Source of the DNA: Gracilaria vermiculophylla
Taxonomy: Eukaryota > Rhodophyta > Florideophyceae > Gracilariales > Gracilariaceae
Length of the DNA: 25,108 bases
Direction of reading: 5' to 3'
Assembly (NCBI GenBank): GCA_019155205.2
Contig: JAHNZQ020000308.1
Span: 459,150-484,257, forward strand
This document shows, piece after piece, positions 1 through 20,556 of this stretch. Under the pieces are notes generated by a model. It saw only the letters and a program-made list of their open reading frames with translations. It did not search any database and was not told where the DNA came from. Position numbers and translations under genes: made by a program. Each line of letters starts with the position of its first letter. The stretch's first letter is position 1.

Positions 1-956
1 GACACAATACCTACAGGGGCAGCGTCATGAAACGTCACCTTCCGCAGGCGTGGGTAAATTGCACGTACATATCGATCCACAAAGGAGGTACCCAATATGC
101 ACTGTGCGGCCAAGTTGGTCGCCACGAGGAACCAAACTTTCACCTGTAAGGAGCCCAACCGGAGGTACAAGGGGATTGCGCAGAGGATAGTCAATGCTCG
201 TCGCAACGAATCGCGTACCGTCGGGAGCTTGCCAGTCCTCAAGGAGTCGAGAGCAGACCGCGGGAGAACGTCGGCGTGCACCAGGTTGGGGCCAGCTCCG
301 GTATCGAGGATAGCGCGCACCGTGGTGGAGGCGAGCGGGGAACATCCTATAGAGGCGAACACCTTGTAGTTCTCACGGCGGAGCGTGCAGACAGAATCCT
401 CAAAGGTGTCGAATGGGTCCAACGGGATTGGGGGGCCCGCCGATTCTGCGTCGACGGAGCAGACGGCCTCTCCCCCTTTCCTAAAGGCGACCTCTGTGGA
501 GCTGAGGCTCGACGATTAGGAGCCACGCGGAGCCTCTACGCGTGGTCCGGAGAGATCTCCTGGTTGGAGAGGGGCTGAGATTCAGTCAGGGACGGCTTCT
601 CCGGTTGAGAATTGAGATGCGACGTGTTCCCCTAGGGGGCAACCGGTTTGGATACAGGTATCTGCGTTGCTGGTGGAAGTGACAGTGGAACAGGCTGCTC
701 TCCCGGTGGAGCGCAGTACCCGTAGTTTCCTTGGGGGGGAGCGGATGTCGCGATAAGCGGTTCGATAACTTCCGCTCTCCGTTGGCGTGTCCTTACCATC
801 CTGGAAGTTCTTTTTCCGTTTCTGCAGGATGGCAGCCCTCATTGCTGGGGATAGAGTCGTACAGTATACGGGCTTTCGAGAGAAGCAAATCCTGCAAGGC
901 GGTGGGTAGCCTCGTGGGTTCGATAATCGGACACTCCTATAAGATTCTGCCGAGGC
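1..956 (-). pseudogene. Retrotransposon linker and aspartic protease (start of pol), interrupted
   Basis: Continuing in the gag frame after the TAG at 957, the minus strand encodes a basic linker, TGA at 582-584, TAA at 516-518, and then an open stretch to base 1. Around 310-265 this stretch encodes VRAILDTGAGPNLVHADVL, the catalytic DTGA signature of retropepsins (one Asp per monomer, dimeric enzyme), and near 85 CILGTSFVDRY, which matches the ILG-x-D/N-F motif near the retropepsin C-terminus. Known role: maturation cleavage of Gag-Pol. The motifs are intact but the frame before them is broken twice. A short Cys-containing segment (CRIC, about 895) is not a CCHC knuckle. The rest of pol lies outside the window. 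Confidence 0.75.
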
Positions 957-6260: not shown

Positions 6261-7434
6261 TTAGACGTTGAAGGCGGCATGAGCAACTTGCTGCAGTCTC
6301 GGCGAAGCGTTGGGCATGGCAGAGTGACGGTCAGCGTGGAAATCGGTTGCGACGAGCAACTGTTGAATCTTCCGCAGCATGGCACGATGAAAGAATTGCA
6401 GACGAGCCAATTTGCGAACCTCCCTCATGTACGTGTCTGTGTCAATGACGCCTTTGTCAATGGCTTCGTCGATCTCATCTAGAGCGTCCGACATGGCAGC
6501 ATCGGCTGCCTTGGCGTGTAGGCTCTGTTCGCTGATTACTGTCGGAGGGTGAGTGAGTTGGTCTATGGATGAGTGGGCTGTTGGTGGCGGGTGGTGCGAA
6601 AGCCATTGTTTAAGCAGGGCTTGCTTGGCGGTGAGGACTTTGTGCTTATGCATTAGTGTTAGATATTGCTTTGTCTTGTGCTGATTGCGTGCATGGTTGG
6701 TATTTTCTATGGCAACAATATTCTCTTTTCGCAAGTGAAGCTGCTTAAGGTGGTGGTTGGCGGCTTGTCGACGCGTTTCCATCGTGGAGGTGAGACGAGC
6801 AGACAGGGTGCGCACGAGAGATTGTTTCTGGTGGTGGTGCGGTTGTGGGGTGTTGGTGACTAGGGAGTATACGGGGGGCTTGACGGAAAAGGCGTGGCGC
6901 ATTGCGTCGACGCACTGTTGCAAAGAGCTTGTGAGCGGGTCCCACTCCGACAGGTAAGGCAAATGCACGAAGCCATTTTTGGCGACGTGCTGGTGGTTTT
7001 GGCGCAGCACCATGGTGCTTGTGGGGACGACGAAGATGTGCGGCGGACCTAGAGGGTGATAAGCCATGACCCAAATGTGGACAGGAATCTTGTAGGTGGC
7101 GCCCTTGTATTCAATTGGGACGGTTCCACGCAGAGCGACGAGGCGCTGCGCACTGCGCTCGGGACGGAAGCTGGCCAAAATGGCGCGCAATGTGGGGTAG
7201 CGAACGCAGCATTGAATGATGTCGTGAATGACGCGCGGCTCGTTGTGCGGTTGGTATGCACGCGACTGTTGCTGCGGGGCGTTGGGGGGGGGGCGGGAAG
7301 GGAGCAGGGATAAGACACGTGTGTTAGAGGGAGGGCGATGAGGAAGGCGACGAGGGAGGGCGGTGACTTACGATACAGGCCCTGATGTGCTGTGGGATCT
7401 GCAGCGGCACTGGCGCGCGCGGGGAGGTCGGCAT
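6261..7434 (-). CDS. VPS23: ESCRT-I subunit TSG101/VPS23
   Basis: Two exons on the minus strand: 7434-7372 (21 codons from ATG, MPTSPRAPVPLQ...) and 7271-6261, separated by a 100-nt intron with GTAAGT donor and CCGCAG acceptor; joined, it gives 357 aa. Residues about 15-155 are a UEV domain, a ubiquitin-conjugating fold without the catalytic Cys: GTVPIEYKGATYKIPVHIW, then GPPHIFVVPTSTM, then HLPYLSEW, all diagnostic for TSG101/Vps23. A His/Gln-rich linker and a probable coiled coil (about 173-243) lead to the C-terminal steadiness box, AIDKGVIDTDTYMREVRKLA (291-310). Known role: ESCRT-I binding of ubiquitinated cargo at endosomes and membrane scission. Exon 1 is inferred from the splice signals and from helix 1 of the UEV domain. 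The first in-frame ATG is assumed. Confidence 0.88.
7272..7371 (-). other. Intron of TSG101/VPS23
   Basis: A 100-nt GT-AG intron with donor GTAAGT at 7371 and acceptor GCAG ending at 7272, phase 0. Removing it joins helix 1 of the UEV domain (...QIPQHIRACI to QQSRAYQPHNEPRV...) in frame. A second AG six bases further in would also keep frame. Confidence 0.75.
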
Positions 7435-16310: not shown

Positions 16311-17498
16311 GTCTTTAGGAATGGTAGATGTGTGCCGGAAGGGGCGAGGGGATGATAGCGGGGTGTTGGTGGTTTAAAAGAGTGTGTGGGAGATGTGAAA
16401 CGGACAAAGACGGTGAAAAGATTGGGGCGTTGAGGTTTGAAACGTTTGGAAAGATGAGAAACAAGAGAACTGTTTGGGTGGTAAGCTGCAGGGTACGACG
16501 GCGCTTGAAACAGATGCGAGTCAATTGCTAAAACGGCTAGGCGACGGGTGTGAGGCGAGTTTAAGAGGTGAGAAGGCAACGCTCATGACACGATGGTCGG
16601 TAATACAGAGGCGATAGGGGGGAAGTGGGTGACAGGGAGCGCGGACATGAGGCAATGCGGGGCGACGAAGCGGACATATAAGATGTGCGTTTTAAACGAG
16701 GAGATGATTGCGGAAAGCGATGCATGTGGTGGCGCTGTAGGCGCGGCAGGGGCGAGGCTGTGCACTGCGAAGTGCGAATCATCAAGCAGTTGTACAGTGT
16801 ATGATCGGTGTGTATGCGCGGATGATTTTGGCGCGCGCTTTTCAAATTTGACTTTGGGAGCCAATGGCGCTGCGCGGCGCGAGGCCACGCGTGGGTGGCG
16901 CGCGCTGCTGTGTTGTGCGCGGTGCGCGGGGGTGGACCACCGGCGGCTCATCGATAGGCCGCAGGCGACGGCGCGGGCGGCGTTCGCCGCGCGCAACGTG
17001 CCGGGGTTGCAGGGCTATGCGTTACCTTACCTTCGCCGCGGGGACACTGACTGCGATCCTCTGCGACTACGCCCGCGAGGAGTTGCGTTGCGATGCGGTC
17101 GGCGGGGCGGGACCGACCAGCAGGTGGTACGCCTTGCTCGCAGTACCCAGAACAGGTAACCGTTGAGGCGCGCAGCGTCTGCGCCAAAGCTTTGCTTGTG
17201 TTTGAACGCGGTGCTGCCGGGTAAGTCGCGTCGCGGCTGTCGGTCTTCTGCTGCTGCAGCTGCGCTCCTCCGCTTCCCGCCCTTTCCACGTCGTCCACCT
17301 TGCCACGCTGTGTATGGCAAGGTGGCGCTCACATGCGCCCAGATCATCAATTCAGATGGCGGTCTGACAGTGTTGCTGCGCACCACTGCGCACTGGCCCG
17401 GGTTGGTTCCCATCAAGCCACCGCGCTTAAGCTGCTCGCCCTCGCCCCGCTTCTCTTCTTCTCAAACGCCATCCCACCCGCTGCCCCTCTCCGTCACA
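16311..17498. other. Intergenic, divergent promoters with GC-rich core
   Basis: About 1.2 kb between two divergent genes. The core (about 16840-17130) is markedly GC-rich with CpG-dense runs, and open frames in it on both strands contradict each other, so I call none. ACAG|GTAACC near 17155 could be a 5' UTR donor. The pyrimidine-rich 17400-17498 precedes the Spondin_N ATG. An 11-bp inverted repeat is listed separately. Confidence 0.5.
17295..17325. promoter_or_regulatory. 11-bp perfect inverted repeat upstream of the Spondin_N gene
   Basis: CCACCTTGCCA (17295-17305) and TGGCAAGGTGG (17315-17325) form a perfect dyad with a 9-base spacer, about 175 bp before the ATG. It could be a dimeric-factor site or an RNA hairpin in the leader; neither is shown. 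Confidence 0.4.
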
Positions 17499-18293
17499 AT
17501 GCGTTTGCCCCCATGCCTTCTTCCTGTTCTTCTACTCCTGCTCCCCGCCGTGGCAAGCGCCGCCTGCTCAGGTGAACAATCCTATGTACTGTCGCTCCGA
17601 ATGTCCTTCACTCAAAACATCAATCCGTTGATCCCGCCCCGCGACAAGGCCCGTATTCCGGTCGTCGTTGCCGTCTCACACAAGCCCAACTACCATTTGT
17701 TTGAACCCGCTAAGAAGCTCAGTGATGCCGCTGCTGAGGTGGCTTCTGCGGGAAAGGCTGATGAAATAAAGCACCAGTTTGATATCCTGCGAGAAACTGG
17801 TGACGTACACTCTTTTCGCATCCTTCATGATGTTCCTATCGACGATATCTCTCAGCTACAGCTCGACGTCAAGGACTCTGCATCTAGAATATCCCTAATG
17901 GCCCAGCTCAGTCCCTCTCCATCCTGGTTTGTCGGCGTGGATTCTTTTGACCTTTGTGAACAATCAAGGTTTATCGTCGAACGCCAGAACATTCGCGTCA
18001 GGAACTACAACTCAGGACTCGACAGCAGCCAGCAGTTTGCCATGTCAGATCCTTTCAATGAGGGTGACACACTCCCTGTTGAGTTACTGTCGGCTGTGGA
18101 AACTGATACTCAGTTGGCTACGCTGTCCGTCAAGCAAGGTACCCTCGGCATTAGTTTTTGGAAGATAATCTTGGGAGCTGTTGCTGCTGCTGTTGTAGTT
18201 GCTGCCATTGTCTGTGTCGTTATTCCCTTATGGCGGCGAAGGAACAAAGCTACTCAAATTCCTCTCACCACTCAAGAAGGAACCGAGTGGTAA
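17499..18293 (+). CDS. Spondin_N-domain single-pass surface protein
   Basis: 264 aa, ATG at 17499 chosen because a textbook signal peptide starts there (LLPVLLLLLPAVASA, cleavage near 21-22); the frame is open upstream but not protein-like. Residues about 27-190 match the Spondin_N domain of F-spondin-type matrix proteins and their microbial relatives: FTQNINPLIPPRD near the start and the signature SLMAQLSPSPSWFVGVDSFD (132-151) followed by LC, then NYNSGLDSS (169-177), equivalent to the DAGTDSG segment. One membrane span (about 223-244) is followed by a basic stop-transfer RRR and a short cytoplasmic tail. Predicted: type I membrane protein with its adhesion-type domain outside. Ligand unknown. 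Convergent with the kelch-Hint gene. Confidence 0.85.
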   Translation: MRLPPCLLPVLLLLLPAVASAACSGEQSYVLSLRMSFTQNINPLIPPRDKARIPVVVAVSHKPNYHLFEPAKKLSDAAAEVASAGKADEIKHQFDILRETGDVHSFRILHDVPIDDISQLQLDVKDSASRISLMAQLSPSPSWFVGVDSFDLCEQSRFIVERQNIRVRNYNSGLDSSQQFAMSDPFNEGDTLPVELLSAVETDTQLATLSVKQGTLGISFWKIILGAVAAAVVVAAIVCVVIPLWRRRNKATQIPLTTQEGTEW

Positions 18294-18624: not shown

Positions 18625-20556
18625 TCAACTTCTCCAATAAGCCACATCTAAAGTTCGAAGCACCGCTCTGTTGACAATTTCCATTCTCTCCGCTGATTTC
18701 AAAATACTGTAAACCATCCTCATCGGCACAAGCAGCAATTTAGCAATAGTTGGCTTAATTGCAGATGTGAACGTGCTGGTAAGCACACCATTCACAACGA
18801 TGTCTCCATGTACGGTGTGCGGGTTATGTAGACCTGTGGCCCAAATCGTGGACACTTCGGATACGGCTGCAATCTTGGCGTCATGTGATATGGAAACCAT
18901 ATCACCAACCCGTACTCGCGACGCCTTCATCAACTTTCCGTTGGCGTACACTAAGTGTCCCGGTGACAAAGTCAAAGAAATGCCTTCCATTGATGTTCTG
19001 ATAACAACAAACTCGGATTGCTTGTGGGCATGATTGTGTGAAAAGAAGTATATCTCACTGTACTCATTGGGATGAGCAACCTTCACGCGATCGCCGATGC
19101 GTAATGAACTCATCACCTTCATGGACCCGTCTTCTAGCTCTACGGTGGCATCAGAGGGGAAACAGGCAGGAGTACTATTGGTGCTTTCCGCGGAGCTCTC
19201 AGCGGGAGCAGGTTCTTCTGCTGAAGGTGATGATGCTGCGCGAAAGGAGAGAATACGGGGTTAGATGCGGATTTGAAGCAATTTGTGCGAGGAAATACTT
19301 ACGATTTGATGGTGTGCTGCTGGCATCGAGGTCGTCCGCCCCAACAGCTCCACTAGAAGTATCATTGGGAGCAGAAGGCTCGCTCTCGCTCTGCTCTGCT
19401 GGAGTGGAAACAGGCGAGGGATCTTGAGTGGCGGGGGCATTGGTTGTAGTGCTAGGCGCAGCAGTGGCCGTAACAGTGGGTGCGGAGCTGCTGCCACAGA
19501 CCGGCACCTTGTCACCGTTATATAGAGCGTACGTGTCAGTGGCGGGATTCCCTGCGCCCAAAACACGCTCGCCACCAGCGATCCAGATAGCTCCGTTGCA
19601 TGCAACGATTCCCGTTCCGTGGCGAGGTTCTGGAAGAGAGGGACCTGGCTGGAAAGAAGAGCCTTTGAGCACATCAACCTCAGTCCACGCTCGGTTGTCG
19701 CCCTCGCCGCCCATAACATATATTGTCCCATCTAGCACAGCAGAGGCGGTGCCTCCACGCGGACGGGAAAGCTCTGTTAAAGTGCTCCACTTGCCAGAAC
19801 CGAAGTCATACACGTCAACCTCTGCAACGGTGTCGTCAAAAAATTCTGGAAAGTCAGACGTTGAGCGACGACCACCGGTGACGTAAACCTTATTGTCCTT
19901 CACCACAGCATTACAATGATCACGGGCTTCGTCGTTTAAATGAACAACCGGTTAGAAGAAATGCGCGAGATTTTTTTAAGAGATAGGCGAAGCGACGCGG
20001 CTTTCAACTTACGGTTGGGCATATCGGGGAGCCTTTCCCATTTGCCGGTGGCAGGGTCATATGAATCGAACCAGGGGACAACCTTGGCACCCTCACGATG
20101 ACCGCCAACGTTACCGGTAACGAGATATACCTTTCCATCATGGAAGAATGCACCCCCAGAACCTCTCGGACGGTCAATGACATCATCCTTAAACCACTGG
20201 TCCGAATCCGGACAATATCGCCAAATGTTGTCAACAGTAGATTCTGTGGGAAAGCCCCCGGTCCAGGCGCCCGCTACCCATACGCAGTTATCAGGACCTT
20301 GAAAGGCTTGGAAGTGATGCATCTCCAAAGAATTAGACTGCGCAGGTTGCCATTGACGCGTTTGCGTATCAAGGATATGAACACGATTGGCGCCGCGTCC
20401 ACCCAGAAGACATATTTTATTGCCGGCGCACAAAGAGAGAGAGGTTTCACCGCGACCCGGGTAACTACCAGATACGGGGACTTTTTTCCAAGATAACGCG
20501 GCTGAAGAAGATGTGGCGAGGTAAAATAGCACAACCAATTGGTATGCAGAGCGCAT
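18625..20556 (-). CDS. Secreted kelch propeller fused to hedgehog-type Hint (Hog) domain
   Basis: Three exons on the minus strand: 20556-20013, 19926-19303 and 19235-18625, with GTAAGT donors and AG acceptors, both introns phase 1; the spliced length is 1779 nt, giving 592 aa. Residues 1-20 are a signal peptide. About 25-320 hold six kelch repeats (e.g. NKICLLGGRG, GKVYLVTGNVGG, NKVYVTGGRR, GTIYVMGGEG, GAIWIAGGE), a six-bladed propeller. Residues 327-413 are a Ser/Thr/Pro/Ala linker. Residues 414-592 are a Hint module beginning CFPSDATVELEDGS (Cys414 as nucleophile), then LRIGDRV, LSPGHLVYA with His483 in place of the TxxH His, and LHNPHTVHGDIVVNGVLTST. Known family: Hint modules cleave the bond before Cys1 via a thioester; in Hedgehog a sterol then attacks. 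Here the residue before Cys is Ala. Self-cleavage and any lipid transfer are inference. Confidence 0.88.
19236..19302 (-). other. Intron 2 of kelch-Hint gene
   Basis: 67-nt GT-AG intron: donor GTAAGTA at 19302, acceptor TTTCGCGCAG ending at 19236, phase 1. It separates the Ser/Thr-rich linker from the Hint-encoding exon. Confidence 0.8.
19927..20012 (-). other. Intron 1 of kelch-Hint gene
   Basis: 86-nt GT-AG intron: donor GTAAGTTG at 20012, acceptor GACGAAG ending at 19927, phase 1. Splicing restores a kelch strand reading MPNPRDHCNAVVKDNKVYVT. A CTAAC-like branch sequence (TTCTAACC) lies inside. Confidence 0.8.

What the first reader, a model, noticed from the sequence alone, without database searches (positions are those of the whole stretch)
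18625..20556. Kelch propeller fused to a hedgehog-type Hint (Hog) module in a non-animal gene
A signal peptide, six kelch repeats, a mucin-like linker and a full Hint module starting CFPSDATVELEDG sit in one clean three-exon gene. In Hedgehog the Hint module releases and lipid-modifies the upstream domain; here the cargo would be a secreted kelch propeller. Compared with Hedgehog, the residue before Cys1 is Ala instead of Gly, the block-B TxxH reads SPGH, and the position of the later Cys (ASCY) is TSTF. Hog-type proteins are known from various protists, but a kelch-Hog pairing is, as far as I can tell, not a described architecture. The C-terminal 45 residues after the Hint core are hydrophobic/basic and could play the sterol- or membrane-recognition role.
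Basis: partly seen in the sequence, partly recalled or inferred. Interest (0 to 1): 0.88.

Follow-up and report, generated by a model that had tools for sequence, protein, structure and literature searches.

The report
Red-algal kelch protein with Hedgehog-type self-processing domain
A red seaweed gene joins a secreted propeller protein to the kind of self-cutting, lipid-attaching tail that Hedgehog has in animals; its genome holds at least 32 such tails on many different proteins, and those examined all share one altered catalytic residue.

Summary

The genome has 32 Hog modules on varied N-termini (kelch, FAS1, trypsin, temptin, pentapeptide, many unnamed). All 32, and all 58 outside relatives counted, carry His where animal Hedgehog has the general base Asp46: the engineered D46H swap that keeps sterol ligation and widens its substrates. 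None has Gly before Cys1; the second Cys (C143) is mostly Thr. A Dispatched-like protein is present; four GPI-anchor families gave no match, with weak controls.

Best explanation: self-cleavage before Cys414 with transfer of the propeller to a sterol. Boldest reading: Hog sterylation stands in for GPI anchoring in red algae. No chemistry was tested, and big Hint families also occur in diatoms.

The parts
18625..20556 (-). kelch-Hog gene, coding part, 592 aa
   Evidence: spliced model; orthologue P0001 76% identical over full length
20497..20556 (-). signal-peptide-like N-terminus, aa 1-20
   Evidence: hydrophobic stretch after Met; no dedicated predictor was available
20013..20556 (-). exon 1
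   Evidence: open frame up to GTAAGT donor
19927..20012 (-). intron 1, 86 nt
   Evidence: GTAAGT...AG; the only one of three AG acceptors tested that keeps the frame open
19303..19926 (-). exon 2
19236..19302 (-). intron 2, 67 nt
   Evidence: GTAAGT...CAG; acceptors at 19221 and 19218 also keep the frame
18625..19235 (-). exon 3 with stop codon
19496..20496 (-). kelch propeller, aa 21-325 (interrupted by intron 1)
   Evidence: Pfam Kelch_1/Kelch_6; model of orthologue
19165..19495 (-). Ser/Ala/Pro/Thr-rich linker, aa 326-413 (interrupted by intron 2)
   Evidence: 21 S, 16 A, 14 P, 12 T of 88 residues; the matching part of the orthologue's model has low confidence
18763..19164 (-). Hint core, aa 414-547
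19162..19164 (-). Cys414 = Cys1 nucleophile
   Evidence: Cys in 32/32 own Hints and in 57/57 outside ones that reach it
19036..19038 (-). His456, at the place of the general base Asp46 (Asp303) of fly Hedgehog
   Evidence: aligned with the engineered His of PDB 6TYY; His in 32/32 own and 58/58 outside
18955..18966 (-). block B, Ser480-Pro-Gly-His483
   Evidence: His 32/32 and 58/58; first residue Thr 17, Ser 15 of 32
18766..18774 (-). motif J: Thr544 at the C143 place, then Phe545 and Thr546
   Evidence: 544: T24 C3 S3 A2 of 32; 546: Thr 32/32 own, 52 T + 4 S of 56 outside
18628..18762 (-). SRR-like C-terminal helix-loop-helix, aa 548-592 with K555, P560, R562
   Evidence: model helices 161-178 and 181-200; H/P/R motif in 24/29/31 of 32 own

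Best explanation
The gene makes a secreted precursor. In the secretory pathway the C-terminal Hog domain attacks its own upstream peptide bond: Cys414 takes over the carbonyl of Ala413 as a thioester, helped by block-B Ser480/His483. His456, in the place of Hedgehog's Asp46, then activates the 3-OH of a membrane sterol held by the helix-loop-helix, and the kelch propeller with its linker leaves as a C-terminal sterol ester, tethered to a membrane or handed to the cell surface. The Hog part is spent. The same module would do this for the 31 other Hog genes with other cargoes. Shown: gene structure, domains, predicted fold, residue conservation, orthologues, family size. Inferred: secretion, cleavage, sterol as acceptor, surface anchoring, any role of the Dispatched-like protein.
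For: Hint profile and fold. Cys1, His46 and block-B His invariant in 32 of 32 own Hints; His46 and block-B His in 58 of 58 outside, Cys1 in the 57 that reach it. D303H (=D46H) fly Hint keeps structure and activity and widens sterol use (PMC9163320 section 11). SRR helix 1 carries Hedgehog's H374/P379/R381 motif in 24/29/31 of 32 own and 35/51/48 of 55 outside. In Hedgehog the SRR is needed for sterol transfer but mutants without it still undergo proteolysis (PMC7242414 passages), so keeping it argues for a transfer step. Cholesterol is a main sterol of red algae, including a Gracilaria (PMC3113362 passages); a sterol-reductase family gene is in the genome. A Dispatched-like protein is present, with red algal relatives, one named so in Gracilariopsis chorda; animal DISP1 releases Hedgehog from producing cells (PMC9222137 passages). 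Kelch 88.9%, Hint 74.6%, linker 60.9% identical to the orthologue.
Against: No biochemical data. Residue -1 is never Gly (0 of 32, 0 of 57), unlike Hedgehog. The C143 thiol, which PMC13060885 cites as forming a branched intermediate, is kept in only 3 of 32 own and 6 of 56 outside. In the window gene SRR His374 is Lys and I see no HWY motif of SRR helix 2; the SRR-like part is 45 residues against 97 in human SHH (32 of those are a dispensable loop) and is the least conserved part (55.6%). The sterol pocket was not modelled. Dispatched/NPC1/Patched-like proteins may serve general sterol transport, and Patched homologues occur in protists without the pathway, e.g. Chlamydomonas (PMC9222137).
Confidence: 0.6

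Rival explanations
1. Self-cleavage only: the Hog domain forms the thioester and water (or a cell thiol) releases a soluble propeller; no lipid is added.
For: Residue -1 is not Gly, C143 is mostly replaced and the SRR-like part is short. Hedgehog mutants without an SRR undergo proteolysis without cholesterol.
Against: SRR helix 1 motif is conserved across the family (24/29/31 of 32), which hydrolysis alone would not need; His46 supports sterol transfer in fly Hint. In human cells an SHH construct without SRR yielded no N-product.
Confidence: 0.22
2. Transfer to another nucleophile: the thioester is passed to a non-sterol lipid or to a hydroxyl of the wall polysaccharide, fixing cargoes in the wall.
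For: D46H widens the acceptor range in vitro; Burglin 2008 uses the neutral name 'adduct recognition region' for divergent Hog tails; cargoes such as FAS1, trypsin and carbonic anhydrase suit the outside of the cell. A near-invariant Thr/Ser two residues after the C143 place is unexplained.
Against: The Hedgehog-like H/P/R helix argues for a membrane lipid; no direct evidence for any other acceptor.
Confidence: 0.12
3. The module is catalytically dead or only structural, or kelch and Hint belong to separate genes.
For: Gracilaria domingensis has a kelch-only protein model, P0004; no transcript of the window gene itself was seen.
Against: Catalytic residues invariant in 32 of 32; full-length fusion in an orthologue whose sequence also appears in EukProt under a label that looks like a transcript record, GEZJ01001091.1 (label only, record not opened).
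Confidence: 0.04

Closest known systems
Kelch+Hint (K+H) fused genes of Cyanidiales red algae (PMC9812998)
   Same: kelch domain, Thr/Pro/Ala-rich linker, Hint module annotated as hedgehog
   Different: those are described among subtelomeric duplications (3 and 11 copies); here two copies, both inside a 6-Mb contig, with orthologues in Gracilariaceae. The section read gives no catalytic-residue or mechanism analysis; Cyanidiales sequences were not at hand to test orthology. C. merolae Hog genes also bear H3K27me3 (PMC5405695 passages)
Animal Hedgehog, Hog part (PDB 1AT0; D46H mutant 6TYY)
   Same: Hint fold, Cys1, block-B His, SRR-like helix pair
   Different: kelch instead of the Hedge domain; His for Asp46, Thr for C143, no Gly at -1, shorter SRR
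Hog proteins of protists, mosses and red algae (PMC2362128)
   Same: secreted N-terminus plus Hog; motif-J Cys replaced in red algae and mosses
   Different: N-termini there were largely without known domains, apart from Hoglet (cellulose-binding) and GmGIN1 (GTPase-like)
Large Hint-domain families of diatoms (PMC12803021: over 290 genes in Pleurosigma pacificum, 112 in S. robusta)
   Same: lineage expansion of genes with the Hedgehog Hint domain in algae
   Different: cargoes and catalytic residues not given in the passage read
Nematode hedgehog-related families (warthog, groundhog, quahog)
   Same: lineage expansion of Hog with non-Hedge N-termini
   Different: there N-termini probably diverged mostly from one progenitor (PMC2362128); here several unrelated Pfam folds

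Membership tests
Hog-type Hint (PF01079) | Hint profile over curated cut-off | tested here: met
   105.3 bits vs 29.7
Hog-type Hint (PF01079) | Hint fold closest to Hedgehog | tested here: met
Hog-type Hint (PF01079) | Cys1 and block-B Thr/Ser-x-x-His | tested here: met
   Cys414, Ser480, His483
Hog-type Hint (PF01079) | general base Asp46, as in animal Hedgehog | tested here: not met
   His456, as in the engineered D46H. Lowers identity with animal Hedgehog, not membership of the Pfam family
Hog-type Hint (PF01079) | motif-J Cys (C143) | tested here: not met
   Thr544; replacement already known in red algal Hog
Hog-type Hint (PF01079) | SRR: helix-loop-helix with H/P/R motif | tested here: inconclusive
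   two helices, P and R kept, His to Lys, no HWY seen
Hog-type Hint (PF01079) | self-cleavage and sterol ligation | not testable with these tools
   needs biochemistry
Hedgehog proper | N-terminal Hedge signalling domain (PF01085) | tested here: not met
   N-terminus is kelch; no PF01085 match in the genome, though no control genome rang
Vint | Vint profile over cut-off | tested here: not met
   15.2 bits, cut-off 27
Kelch+Hint genes of Cyanidiales | kelch, T/P/A-rich linker, Hint in one protein | tested here: met
   the linker here is richest in Ser
Kelch+Hint genes of Cyanidiales | common descent with them | not tested
   no Cyanidiales protein is named among the 120 of 223 hits listed or the 53
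Dispatched (locus L042) | closer to Dispatched than to Patched or NPC1 | tested here: met
   Disp1 E 2.5e-46; NPC1L1 8.7e-12; Patched 9.8e-11 (sequences of solved structures only; no tree)

The most novel reading that the evidence does not exclude
Red algae, which appear to lack GPI anchors, use Hog self-sterylation as a general way of anchoring or releasing surface proteins: one cargo-independent, self-consuming module with a natural His general base puts a sterol on propellers, FAS1 proteins, proteases, oxidases and carbonic anhydrases, and a Dispatched-like pump handles the products. Hedgehog would then be the animal relic of an old protein-lipidation system.
Probability: 0.23. Interest if true: 0.9.

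Novelty: new variant of a known kind. Interest (0 to 1): 0.62.

Why it matters
To my knowledge Hedgehog is the only protein shown to be sterylated by its own tail. A seaweed family of 32 Hog proteins with unrelated cargoes, a uniform His at the Asp46 place and mostly no C143 is a natural test of what the chemistry needs: which base, whether the proposed Cys143 branched step is essential, whether Gly -1 is needed, which sterols are accepted. If active, it would bear on where the Hedgehog tail came from and on how organisms without GPI anchors tether surface proteins, and it would offer cargo-tolerant sterol ligases to enzyme engineers.

Tried and rejected
Separate genes for kelch and Hint: rejected, full-length orthologues. 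Vint: profile below cut-off. Intein: the Hint profile and the fold ranking favour Hedgehog, and the sequence ends in the SRR-like tail, not in an extein (read by eye). The architecture as new: rejected. Frizzled/Smoothened, Hedge domain, PIG-T, PIG-S, PIG-M: no match in the genome, but no control genome rang, so absence is not shown; PIG-A: no match, one control rang below cut-off. Sterol-reductase PF01222, MBOAT, Patched and SSD families did match, so the search can find eukaryote genes here. The two MBOAT hits were not typed as Hhat or other. Paper searches for Hint with other cargoes (3 papers) gave one diatom paper to the point and for algal cholesterolysis none. Cargo grouping by BLAST is single linkage on uncurated open frames; in the crude hydropathy scan there (30 of 32; L011 and L022 left out) L014 and L033 lack a clear signal-peptide start, perhaps because an upstream exon is missing.

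Full report
Check of the observation. The minus-strand gene at 18625-20556 splices into a 592-aa protein with two short GT-AG introns. Exons 1 and 2 score with kelch models and exon 3 with Hint PF01079 at 105.3 bits against a cut-off of 29.7. Its best relative, P0001 of Agarophyton chilense, is 76% identical over the full length and has the same architecture; the same sequence is in EukProt under a name that looks like a transcript record (I saw the label only). Kelch is 88.9% identical between the two, Hint 74.6%, linker 60.9%, SRR-like tail 55.6%.

Family. The genome (44.8 Mb, 27 contigs) gave 32 Hint matches, all over the cut-off, on 12 contigs, the window gene included; the tool calls such counts lower bounds. 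Pfam names a cargo in 8 of 32: kelch 2 (for L022 in open frames just upstream of the Hint frame), FAS1 2, trypsin 1, temptin 1, pentapeptide 2; the open frames of the other 24 gave no cargo family. Eight of these 24 share an N-terminal domain by BLAST. Outside, 53 Hint proteins were found from the window's Hint, with FAS1, trypsin (two named Porphyridium), copper monooxygenase, alpha-carbonic anhydrase (one named Porphyra) and kelch as partners. On a quick tree of 88 of 90 Hints (two short ones left out; SH-aLRT only) the FAS1-linked ones form one clade (14 rows, 99) and 8 of 10 kelch-linked ones lie in another (97), the other two kelch ones elsewhere; the 4 trypsin-, 2 copper-enzyme- and 2 pentapeptide-linked ones each fall in two places. 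All labels together need 12 changes against 31.2 in shuffles. So cargo and Hint often, not always, descend together.

Catalytic residues. I counted 32 own and 58 outside Hints (53 plus 5; chosen by likeness to the window, not made non-redundant). Cys1: 32/32 and 57/57 that reach it. His at the Asp46 place: 32/32 and 58/58. Block-B His: 32/32 and 58/58. Residue -1: never Gly (32 and 57). C143 place: Thr 24, Cys 3, Ser 3, Ala 2 of 32; outside Thr 41, Cys 6, Ser 5, Ala 3, Gly 1 of 56. Two residues later Thr is 32/32 and Thr/Ser 56/56. SRR His/Pro/Arg: 24/29/31 of 32 own and 35/51/48 of 55 outside. phmmer aligned the window's His456 with the engineered His of 6TYY. In fly Hint this exchange keeps activity and lets other sterols in (PMC9163320, section 11 read). 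C143 as a branched intermediate is known to me only from a footnote and a reference title in PMC13060885 (passages); the paper itself is not held.

Context. One of two Patched/SSD-family proteins is Dispatched-like; its relatives include a Gracilariopsis protein so named and a Chondrus one. The other is NPC1/Patched-like. PMC3797821 (abstract and passages) states that GPI-anchor synthesis is apparently missing in Rhodophyta; here PIG-A, PIG-M, PIG-S and PIG-T gave no match, with the weak controls noted under Tried and rejected. Cholesterol is a main sterol in red algae (PMC3113362, passages).

Known and new. Kelch-Hint fusions are in print for Cyanidiales (PMC9812998, section 13 read), Hog domains with a changed motif-J Cys in red algae since 2008 (PMC2362128, section 9 read), Hog genes of C. 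merolae as H3K27me3 targets (PMC5405695, passages) and large Hint families in diatoms (PMC12803021, one passage). The listings and the passages I read did not mention the uniform His46, the range of cargoes seen here, or a link between Hog and missing GPI anchors; but only open-licence papers are held, long lists were cut (20 of 749, 15 of 190) and no search was aimed at His46 in algae. Hence a new variant of a known kind, with the chemistry still to be shown.

Noticed in passing
L014 and L018 (C22), L021 and L029 (C4): Two same-strand pairs of Hog genes whose Hint parts lie within about 3 kb of each other; both of the C4 pair carry FAS1.
   Followed up: partly
L013, L014, L016, L017, L018, L028, L032, L034: An N-terminal domain shared by BLAST among eight Hog genes, not matched by Pfam, with cysteines that look conserved by eye: the commonest Hog cargo here.
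   Followed up: partly
L042:1-2910 minus: A Dispatched-like RND protein in a red alga, far closer to solved Dispatched chains than to Patched or NPC1.
   Followed up: partly
one search hits P0006, P0007, P0009: After the red-algal-looking hits, the nearest kelch propellers are 38-41% identical proteins from unlabelled or metagenome sources, and some further hits are named bacterial; the propeller may have come from bacteria.
   Followed up: no
window 17160-18293 plus: Neighbouring gene with a Spondin_N domain and a C-terminal hydrophobic stretch, convergent with the Hog gene.
   Followed up: no
window 6-515 minus: Open frame with a gag-type aspartyl protease match below the Pfam cut-off; a retroelement may lie at the window's left end.
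   Followed up: no
window 6261-7367 minus: UEV plus Vps23 core in one open frame: an ESCRT-I Vps23/TSG101 homologue.
   Followed up: no
P0008 and P0121: A kelch protein and a Hint protein whose longest contigs have the same length, 11826; possibly one kelch-Hog gene split by gene prediction.
   Followed up: no
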